64,000 nucleotides of DNA from Actinophytocola gossypii. Its GTDB lineage: Bacteria > Actinomycetota > Actinomycetes > Mycobacteriales > Pseudonocardiaceae. The stretch is from NCBI RefSeq assembly GCF_025165815.1, contig NZ_JAFFZE010000014.1, positions 434,001 through 498,000 on the forward strand, given 5' to 3'. The notes under the pieces were generated by a model, which worked only from the letters and a program-made list of their open reading frames with translations, was not told the origin of the DNA and searched no databases. Below, one piece after another: positions 21,201-24,200 of the stretch. Each line of letters begins with the position of its first letter. Within the stretch, counting starts at the first letter, position 1. Both the position numbers and the translations under genes were made by a program.

Positions 21201-24200
21201 GGTCGGCGACGTCGCAGGCCACGGCCCGGACGGTGGCGCCGGCCTCGGTCAGCTCGTCGACCAGGGCGGCGGCGCCGGGGGCGGCCGGGCCGCGGCGGCT
21301 GGCGAGCACCAGGTGCCGGACGCCGTGCCGGGTGACCAGGTGCCGGGCGACCAGCGCGCCGAGCCCGCCGGTGCCGCCGGTGACCAGGACGGTGCCGTCC
21401 GGGTCGAGCGTCCTGGTGTCCACTTCGGAGGGTGTGGTGCGGACGAGCCTGGGCACCAGCACGACGCCGTCGCGGACGGCGGTCTCCGGCTCCCCGGAGG
21501 CGATGGCGGCGGCCAGGCCGGTGTCGTCGTCGTCCAGGTCGACGAGGGCGAACCGGCCGGGGTGTTCCTCCTGGGCGGCGCGCACGAGACCCCAGACGGA
21601 TGCGTGGACCAGCGCCGGCTCGGGGTGGTGGACGGCGCGCCGGGTGGTCACCACCAGGCGGGTGTCGCGGGACCGTTCGTCGGCGAGCCGGCCGCGGATC
21701 GCGGCGAGTACCGCCGTGGTCGCGGCCAGCGCGTCGGCGGGGACGTCGCCGGTCGCGGGGTCGGGCACGGGGAACACCACGGTGTCGGGCACCGGTTCGT
21801 CCGACAGGGTGGCGGGAATCCAGTCGACCCGGTACAGGGGGTCGGCGGTGAGCTGCCCGGCCGACACCGGTCGGGACACCAGGGACTCGACGGTCAGCAC
21901 GGGACGGCCGGTCTCGTCGGCCATGGTCATCGCGGACACCTCGTCGCCGCGCAGGCGGGTGATCCGGACGCGCAGCGTGCCGGCGCCCGGCGCGTGCAGG
22001 GCGACGCCCTTCCAGACGAACGGGAGCAGGGTCGGGCCGCCGGCGAGCAGGTCGGCGTGCATGGCGGCGTCGAGCAGGGCCGGGTGCACGCCGAACGGGG
22101 CCGCCTGGCCGGCCGGCAGGGTGACCTCGGCGAACACCTCGTCGGCCCGGCGCCACGCGGCGCGCAGGCCCTGGAACGCGGGCCCGTAGTCGTAGCCGCG
22201 GTCGGCGAGCAGCGCGTACGCGTCGCCGACGGGGATCTCCTCGGCGCCGGCCGGAGGCCATTCGGTGAGGGCGGCGGCGGGGGTGGCGTCGGTGGTCAGG
22301 CTGCCGGTGGCGTGTCTGGTCCAGGCGGCGTCGGCGGGGGCGTGTTCGGGCCGGGAGTACACCGACACCGGGCAGCGTCCGTCGGTGGGGGCGCCGACGA
22401 CGACCTGCACCGCGACCGGGGTGCGCTCGTCGAGGGTCAGTGGGGCGTGCAGGGTCAGCTCGTCGACGACCGGGTGTCCGACCTGTTCGCCCGCGCGCAG
22501 CGCCAGCTCGACGAACGCGGTGCCGGGCAACAGGATCGTGCCGAGCACCACGTGGTCGGCCAACCACGGCTGCGCGTCGACCGAGAGCCGCCCGGTCAGC
22601 ACGGCACCGTCGTCGGCCAGCGGGAGCGCGGCGCCGAGCACGGGGTGGCCGGTGCGGGCGTGCCCGGCGGCCGGTTCGGCGTCCAGCCAGAACCGGCGAC
22701 GCTGGAACGGGTAGGTCGGCAGGTCGACACGGCGGGCCGGGCCGAACAACGCGGACCAGTCCACGCCGATCCCCCGCGCGTGCAGGTGGGCGACGGCCGA
22801 CATCAGCTCACGGGTCTCCGGCCTGCCGCGGCGGGTGGTCGCGACGAACGCGTGGTCCCCGTCGACGCAGCCGGGGCCGAGCGCGGTCAGCGCGGCGTCG
22901 GGGCCGAGTTCGAGGAACGTGGTCGAGCCGTCCTCGGCCAGCGTGCGCACGGCGTCGTGGAATCGGACGGGTTCGCGGACCTGCCGGACCCAGTAGTCCG
23001 GGTCGGCCACCGACGACACCAGCGGGATTTGGGGCTCGTGGTAGGTCACGGACTCGGCGACGGTGCGGAACTCGTCGAGCATCGGGTCCATCAGCGGCGA
23101 GTGGAACGCGTGCGACACCCGCAACCGCGTGTGGCGGCACCCCAATCGCTCCACCACCGCCATGACCTCGGCCTCGACCCCGGAGACCACCACCGACTCC
23201 GGCCCGTTCACCGCCGCGACCGCAACCCCGTCGGTCAACAACGGCAACACGTCCGGCGCGAGCCCCCACGACTCCAGGAGCCGGTACAGCGCCACCTCGA
23301 CCGCGAACAACGCCGGCTGGGCGTGCCCGGTGCGGTCCAGCGGCTCTGGGTCGTCGCCGAACAGCACGTCCCGCAGCGGGCGGTCCAGGTGCACGTCCAG
23401 CTCGTCGGCCACCTCGTCGAAGGCCGCCGCGTACGCGGGGAACGCCTGGTACAGCCCTCGGCCCGCGCCGAGCCGCTGGGCGCCCTGCCCGGTGAACAGG
23501 AACGCGGTCCGCCCGCCGGTCCTGGCGACCGGGGTGGTGCCGTCGGCGATCGCCCGCAGCCCGCGCTCGGCCTCGGCACGGTCGGCGGCCACCACGACCG
23601 CGCGGTGGTCGAGCGACGCCCTGGTCGCGGCCAGCGTGGCCGCCACGTCCACCAGGGACTCCGCGCCGGCCACGACCGGCGCGAGCTGCGCGGCCCGTGC
23701 CCGCAACGCGGGCTCGCTCCTGGCGGAGAGCACCACCGGCACCGGACCGGACGGCTCCTGGCCGGGCGTTGGCGACGGCTCGGGGTCGCCCTCCTCGATG
23801 ATCACGTGCGCGTTGGTGCCGCTCACGCCGAACGACGACACCCCGGCCCGTCTCGGGCGGTCGCCGGCCGGCCACGCGCGGGCCTCGGTCAGCAGCTCCA
23901 CCGCGCCGGCGGACCAGTCGACCCGGGAGGTGGGGCGGTCGACGTGCAGGGTCCTCGGCAGCAGGTCGTGCCGCATGGCGAGCAGCATCTTGAGCACCCC
24001 GGCCGCGCCGGCGGCGGCCTGGGCGTGCCCGAGGTTGGACTTCACCGAGCCGAGCCACAGCGGCTCCGCCCGGTCCCGGCCGTACCCGGCGAGCAGCGCC
24101 CGCGCCTCGATCGGGTCGCCGAGCCGGGTTCCGGTGCCGTGCGCCTCCACCGCGTCCACGTCCCGCGCGGTCAGCCCGGCGTCGGCGAGCGCGGCGGCGA

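What the first reader, a model, noticed from the sequence alone, without database searches (positions are those of the whole stretch)
23230..23270. Module 1 AT has lost its active site: a ~53-residue in-frame gap
Aligned with the AT of module 2 in the same protein, AT1 passes from SWGLAPDV (residue 722, nt 23248-23250) directly to LPLLTDG. The block holding GHSIGE, the conserved ARGRLM arginine and the flanking helices is absent (159 bp if measured against module 2). Everything before and after reads as normal AT, and the frame is kept. Without Ser and Arg this AT cannot load malonyl. Either the strain is a natural non-producer, or another AT serves module 1 in trans, or a sequence error is present. 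The junction has only a few bases of shared sequence, so a simple repeat-collapse misassembly is not the obvious explanation.
Basis: partly seen in the sequence, partly recalled or inferred. Interest (0 to 1): 0.78.

Follow-up and report, generated by a model that had tools for sequence, protein, structure and literature searches.

The report
Macrolactam synthase missing an acyltransferase core
In one actinobacterium, the assembly line for a macrolactam appears to have lost the catalytic heart of its first extender-loading domain, just where DNA shared with the neighbouring module begins; it is most likely a recent natural defect, and whether another enzyme loads the module instead can be tested.

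Summary
In the PKS gene at 15238-25413 (-), AT1 runs from ...SWGLAPDV straight to LPLLTDG... and lacks 53 residues (159 bp measured on AT2) that hold the Ser motif and conserved Arg. In 78 of 102 related loci the AT after KS1 could be read, and all 78 keep GHSxG, so the loss was seen only here. This looks like a GRINS-type gene-conversion tract whose upstream edge coincides with the deletion. The assembly looks like a short-read k=127 graph; the junction shares 3 bp, and a two-copy repeat has one linear traversal, so a collapse is unlikely, though no reads were available. AT1 should be dead (missing residues; predicted pTM 0.39 against 0.85 for AT2). Most likely a recent loss-of-function allele of a vicenistatin/ciromicin-type macrolactam cluster. 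Rescue in trans or skipping of module 1 stay open and would give different ring sizes. Modest novelty.

The parts
15238..25413 (-). PKS gene: ACP(load)-KS1-AT1(broken)-DH-KR-ACP1-KS2-AT2-DH-KR-ACP2, 3391 aa
   Evidence: ORF and translation, Pfam, motif order
23248..23496 (-). AT1 5' part, FTGQGAQ...[10 protein letters not shown]1's own sequence (173/225, 76.9%, to AT2)
23247..23248 (-). Junction: 53 residues (159 bp by AT2) absent between PDV and LPLLTDG; GTG microhomology
22954..23247 (-). Tract of AT1 shared with AT2 (290/294 identical; exact runs 23051-23250 and 22954-23025; four differences, at 23026, 23029, 23030, 23050)
18343..18501 (-). Block of AT2 that corresponds to the missing AT1 block (GHSIGE ... 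ARGRLM)
18164..18713 (-). GRINS-like skewed stretch of AT2 (150-bp windows with GC and TA skew both >0.15), presumed donor
18049..18345 (-). AT2 copy of the shared tract
33067..34359 (-). VinK-like discrete acyltransferase (presumed starter transfer; ORF start not refined)
   Evidence: Pfam VinK_C E 2e-32
28383..29603 (-). PLP decarboxylase, presumed for the beta-amino-acid starter; query for the related loci
26624..28228 (-). Methylaspartate (glutamate) mutase E-chain homologue
29600..31546 (-). AMP-binding (adenylation) enzyme
36601..46242 (-). PKS gene with the presumed last module, a TE-like GYSAGG motif and a degenerate AT (GHSVGA at 39310)

Best explanation
A real and recent in-frame deletion in AT1 of a vicenistatin/ciromicin-type (3-amino-2-methylpropionate starter) macrolactam PKS, formed at the upstream edge of a gene-conversion tract donated by AT2 of the same protein. 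Shown: the gap, the AT2 identity starting at the gap, the skew step, GHSxG in each readable relative. Inferred: the direction AT2 to AT1, the order of events (conversion and deletion together, or a 159-bp slip between GACGTG and GAGGTG after conversion), that the DNA is really like this in the cell, and the effect: ACP1 is not loaded by its own AT, so the line stalls at the first extension and the strain makes little or no product unless ACP1 is charged in trans.
For: Gap confirmed. GHSxG present in 78 of 78 related loci where the AT after the best KS1 match could be read, out of 102 examined (101 distinct: L085 and L247 are one); of the other 24, 17 had no KS1 match in the stretch, 6 were cut short, and in L079 no AT motif was located. 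Tract 290/294 identical to AT2 against 173/225 upstream, 171/242 downstream and 995/1278 for KS1/KS2. GC/TA skew of AT1 is 0.05/0.16 in the 150 bp before and 0.30/0.36 in the 150 bp after the junction; AT2 is skewed on both sides of the matching point (46 of 945 PKS windows pass both cut-offs, in 8 runs). An AT1/AT2 exact block of 250 bp occurs in 1 of 41 relatives compared (L044, AT1 intact), so such conversion happens. Of 81 unmasked contig tips, 4 end-to-end overlaps are of exactly 127 bp and 12 of 18 shared tips are 127 bp; no N runs in the stretches fetched except in 13 masked contigs: a k=127 graph, in which a join with 3 bp overlap needs reads across it (inference). The junction 20-mer is unique in the window coding strand up to 2 mismatches. 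The repeat occurs twice on one strand, so only one linear path exists (inference). No further copy of the block listed. AF2 with 22-row alignments: AT1 pLDDT 56.6, pTM 0.39; AT2 84.4, 0.85. In the ten modules, KS Cys motif 10 of 10; AT Ser motif 9 of 10 (AT1 lacks it); AT Arg motif 8 of 10 (AT1 and the AT at 39 kb lack it).
Against: No reads and no second strain were available. Twelve contigs came wholly and one partly as N, so an orphan piece there cannot be excluded, and the own-genome search scored 40 of 343 first-look candidates. Most other motifs are intact, which equally fits a line that still works with help in trans. The skew averaged over the whole tract is weak (0.09/0.19). The AF2 result for a truncated chain is weak evidence alone. 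The deletion may be unrelated to the conversion and merely nested in it.
Confidence: 0.64

Rival explanations
1. Module 1 still works: malonyl is put on ACP1 in trans, by AT2 of the same chain (ACP1 must dock at KS2-AT2 anyway, inference), by FabD, or by a discrete AT. The cluster is then a natural AT-null module in a cis-AT line.
For: The ORF is open and most other motifs are intact. The genome has FabD (C16, over cut-off) and an AT-like match, below the fabD cut-off, in a 324-aa frame on C46. 76 of 78 readable relatives carry HAFHS in this AT, the malonyl type (motif meaning from passages of PMC6164871 and PMC11051340). AT-null modules have been rescued: DEBS AT6null with S. coelicolor MAT (PMC6164871, passages) and Ser-to-Ala AT6, AT9, AT10 of the macrolactam auroramycin with Dszs AT (PMC6943886, passages). 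Irumamycin AT12 is inactive and AT11 is proposed to serve it (PMC11672594, passages).
Against: Nothing in the sequence is specific to it; in the cluster only the VinK-like enzyme was seen as a discrete AT (ten ORFs tested). The tract is so fresh that lack of other decay says little. The engineered auroramycin rescue used a trans AT under a strong promoter and the AT10 products were below 5% of auroramycin.
Confidence: 0.2
2. [quoted passage not shown]
For: Variation of ring size in this family is attributed to PKS mutations (PMC10662134: abstract, sections 6 and 8, part 1 of section 9 read, passages of others). Here the last AT is degenerate too.
Against: Skipping at the first module needs KS1 to pass the starter to unloaded ACP1 and KS2 to accept a chain one unit short; no precedent for module 1 was seen in the passages and listings viewed.
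Confidence: 0.06
3. Assembly or sequencing artefact: intact AT1 in the cell.
For: The junction lies at the end of a 200-bp exact repeat, longer than k=127; draft genome of 53 contigs; elsewhere contigs end inside AT-like sequence (C24, C31); 13 contigs could not be read in full.
Against: A k-mer join needs far more than 3 bp of overlap; the junction sequence occurs once in the own-genome DNA held; only one linear path through the repeat (inference); no further copy of the block listed.
Confidence: 0.12

Closest known systems
Vicenistatin / ciromicin / macrotermycin macrolactam PKSs (3-Amp starter)
   Same: Mutase E, decarboxylase, adenylation enzyme, VinK_C acyltransferase, N-terminal loading ACP; six PKS ORFs with ten KS-AT modules and a TE-like motif, like the six PKS genes of pac/asa
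   Different: AT1 lacks its catalytic block; in the 78 readable relatives it has GHSxG
[quoted passage not shown]
   Same: High identity between modules of one PKS with strong local GC and TA skew, here in AT
   Different: AT1/AT2 tract is about 0.3 kb, not about 1 kb, its skew is confined to the first part, and in AT1 it ends in a deletion
Irumamycin module 12 (naturally inactive AT in a cis-AT PKS)
   Same: An AT-defective module inside a cis-AT line
   Different: There it is the last module and a product is known; here the first, by deletion, product unknown
AT-null DEBS module 6 and AT-null auroramycin modules
   Same: Would work like them: a module whose ACP can be loaded only by another AT
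   Different: Those are engineered

Membership tests
Functional malonyl-CoA AT domain | GHSxG serine nucleophile and the RGxLM arginine | tested here: not met
   Absent between PDV and LPLLTDG
Functional malonyl-CoA AT domain | GQGAQ N-terminal motif and HAFHS histidine | tested here: met
   FTGQGAQ 23476-23496, HAFHS 23098-23112
Functional malonyl-CoA AT domain | Confident AT fold | tested here: not met
   pTM 0.39 against 0.85 for AT2 with the same relatives; prediction only
Beta-amino-acid macrolactam cluster, 3-Amp type | Mutase, decarboxylase, adenylation enzyme, VinK-type AT, PKS starting with ACP | tested here: met
Beta-amino-acid macrolactam cluster, 3-Amp type | Makes a macrolactam | not testable with these tools
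   no metabolite data
GRINS | Identity, often over 90%, to another region of the same PKS | tested here: met
   290/294
GRINS | GC and TA skew over 25% | tested here: inconclusive
   0.30 and 0.36 in the 150 bp after the junction, but 0.09 and 0.19 over 22954-23250
GRINS | Length about 1 kb | tested here: not met
   294-bp tract; AT2 skewed stretch about 550 bp
Trans-AT complemented module | ACP1 loaded by another enzyme | not testable with these tools
   candidates only

The most novel reading that the evidence does not exclude
GRINS-type gene conversion between neighbouring ATs has cut the catalytic core out of one AT in a living line that still makes its macrolactam, with ACP1 charged by AT2 or a discrete malonyl transferase, or with module 1 skipped to give a ring two carbons smaller: a snapshot of a cis-AT module turning AT-less.
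Probability: 0.18. Interest if true: 0.65.

Novelty: new member of a known kind. Interest (0 to 1): 0.36.

Why it matters
Gene conversion between AT domains is thought to diversify assembly lines (PMC10394414 and PMC11907408, passages); this is a candidate case of its cost, a conversion edge that coincides with loss of the catalytic core. If the line still works, it is a natural experiment for how cis-AT modules become AT-less, and the three outcomes (no product, full ring, smaller ring) can be told apart by mass.

Tried and rejected
Conserved feature of the family: rejected, 78 of 78 readable relatives have GHSxG. Some of those are weaker as orthologues or controls: L028 matched without the ACP part; L218 has a divergent AT (GHSQG, no HAFHS, no RGxLM match); L051 reads RAFHS; the RGxLM pattern was also not matched in L077 and L227. 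Two pairs have AT1 DNA over 97% alike (L046/L063, L224/L225). In one search the script filed L051 and L218 as 'odd'; I count them as carrying GHSxG from their printed sequence and.

Lost block parked elsewhere in the assembly: not listed (40 of 343 candidates scored; masked contigs unreadable). Misresolved repeat: rejected on topology (inference). 16S naming of the host: RF00177 gave nothing; genus not named. The family is Pseudonocardiaceae by inference only: family members coincide with named loci such as L027 Saccharothrix, L029 Kibdelosporangium and L036 Labedaea; the family name is recalled. The rpoB search was not pursued. The five other genomes of the genus gave only ordinary AT matches to this stretch, best by E-value 74% over about 400 bp (listing cut).

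Paper searches gave irumamycin as the nearest natural case; the original GRINS paper is not held, its definition is taken from PMC10394414 (passages). PMC9899208 was seen in passages. An early working count of five tract mismatches was wrong; there are four.

Full report
Observation. The PKS gene at 15238-25413 (-) encodes 3391 aa in the order ACP-KS-AT-DH-KR-ACP-KS-AT-DH-KR-ACP. In AT1 the chain goes from ESWGLAPDV to LPLLTDG; the junction is between 23248 and 23247. Against AT2 the gap is 159 bp, 53 residues, holding GHSIGE and ARGRLM. In an alignment with 20 relatives (chosen from 51 extracted) and AT2 this is the one long gap private to AT1; the fabD profile lacks positions 87-153 there. 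Frame and later domains are kept.

From the junction onward AT1 equals AT2: 200 bp exact (23051-23250 / 18146-18345), a 25-bp patch with four differences, and 72 bp exact (22954-23025 / 18049-18120). Over 294 bp identity is 290/294, against 173/225 in the AT1 part before the gap, 171/242 after the tract and 995/1278 for KS1 and KS2. In that patch AT1 differs from each of the eight other modules aligned (the AT at 39 kb was not among them); discontinuous gene conversion would leave such a patch (inference). AT2 is G-over-C and T-over-A skewed over 18164-18713; in AT1 the flagged windows span 23064-23313 and straddle the junction, while windows wholly upstream are not flagged. Averaged over the whole tract the skew is weak (0.09/0.19). 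GRINS are described as about 1-kb stretches, identity often over 90% within a PKS, skews over 25% (PMC10394414, passages); identity and local skew fit, length does not, so I call it GRINS-like. A longer pair in the same cluster lies at 7.8-9.8 kb and 63.7-65.7 kb.

Is it in the DNA? The genome is a draft of 53 contigs. Of 81 unmasked contig tips, four end-to-end overlaps are exactly 127 bp; of 18 shared tips 12 are 127 bp, the rest 95 (3), 133 (2) and 148 (1): the mark of a k=127 graph (inference). In the stretches fetched there are no N runs except contigs that came wholly (12) or partly (C26) as N. At the junction AT1 and AT2's upstream side share GTG only; strings with four or more bases left of the junction and 20 right of it occur once in the own-genome DNA held. 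A repeat that occurs twice on one strand of one contig has a single linear traversal, so a wrong path through it cannot make this gap (inference). The missing block was not listed elsewhere: besides nine other AT matches on this contig (AT2 included) and the two edges of AT1 itself, the best were 75% over 103 bases (C16) and 83% over 60 (C51); 40 of 343 candidates were scored. No reads were available, so I put an artefact at 0.12.

Relatives. A genome scan with the decarboxylase gave 69 loci; a search of 390 genomes of the family gave 85 with a match, from which 33 further stretches were fetched (matches of lower score and those already held were left out, though L247 proved to be L085 again). 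In these 102 loci, 78 had a readable AT after the best KS1 match and all 78 carry GHSxG; 17 had no KS1 match in the stretch held, 6 were cut short, and in L079 no AT motif was located. So the loss is not a trait of the family. Long exact AT1/AT2 blocks are rare: 1 of 41 loci compared (L044, 250 bp, AT1 intact), next 56 bp (only loci, and AT2 was located by motif, so a few comparisons, such as the three with no block at all, may be off).

Effect. The gap takes the nucleophile and the conserved arginine. AlphaFold2 with the same 20 relatives gives pLDDT 56.6, pTM 0.39 for AT1 and 84.4, 0.85 for AT2; for a truncated chain this is only supportive. In 76 of 78 relatives this AT carries HAFHS, the malonyl type (passages of PMC6164871 and PMC11051340), so a malonyl transferase is a possible stand-in: AT2, FabD on C16, an AT-like match below the fabD cut-off in a 324-aa frame on C46. 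Engineered AT-null modules of DEBS and auroramycin can be served in trans, and irumamycin AT12 is a natural inactive AT for which AT11 is proposed to stand in.

Rest of the line. By simple motifs, ten KS have the Cys motif; the Ser motif is missing only in AT1; the Arg motif in AT1 and the AT at 39 kb; HAFHS only in the latter. Some secondary motifs were not matched elsewhere (the first KS His motif in both modules of ORF 36604-46293; the second KS His motif, GQG and DH in ORF 56623-61881), which I did not follow. The 39-kb AT is degenerate: [13 protein letters not shown] at the arginine, RAFHS at the histidine, in the module before the TE-like motif. [quoted passage not shown] With ten modules and a starter that gives four ring atoms, I infer 22 ring atoms if only the last module is dead, 20 if module 1 is skipped as well.

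Verdict. Probably a genuine, private and recent loss of AT1 at the edge of a conversion tract from AT2. Most likely a loss-of-function allele; natural rescue is possible and testable. The kind is known (dead domains, gene conversion in PKSs), the combination is instructive.

Noticed in passing
window 39310-39324 and following (ORF 36601-46242, -): AT of the presumed last module is degenerate: GHSVGA, arginine replaced (ACGELAQ), RAFHS for HAFHS; the module also gave no DH or KR motif match. Compare the altered last modules of ciromicin-type clusters.
   Followed up: partly
window 7836-9787 and window 63732 to L095 about 1683: Chain of exact repeats covering about 1.9 kb between two modules (longest exact run 316 bp; skewed at 8164-9213), a fuller GRINS candidate than the AT1/AT2 tract.
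   Followed up: partly
window 18600-18650 (AT2): AT2 itself lacks about 8 residues ([10 protein letters not shown]) relative to AT1 and relatives, and AT1 and AT2 share a 10-residue gap after LVSSV.
   Followed up: no
L044:11004-11858: Streptomyces sp. yr375 has a 250-bp exact AT1/AT2 block spanning the GHSIG region with intact AT1: the same kind of sharing without loss.
   Followed up: partly
L095 end (C49:516404-518051): The contig ends in a direct repeat of at least 300 bp with copies about 1.3 kb apart, and its last 127 bases equal the start of C9, so the contig likely continues there.
   Followed up: no
L191 and L204 (family genomes G224, G218): The decarboxylase match contains one in-frame TGA in each of these two genomes: possible broken starter genes.
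   Followed up: no
ORF 56623-61881 (-): Simple motif search found no GQG, second KS His motif or DH motif in this single-module PKS, unlike the others.
   Followed up: no
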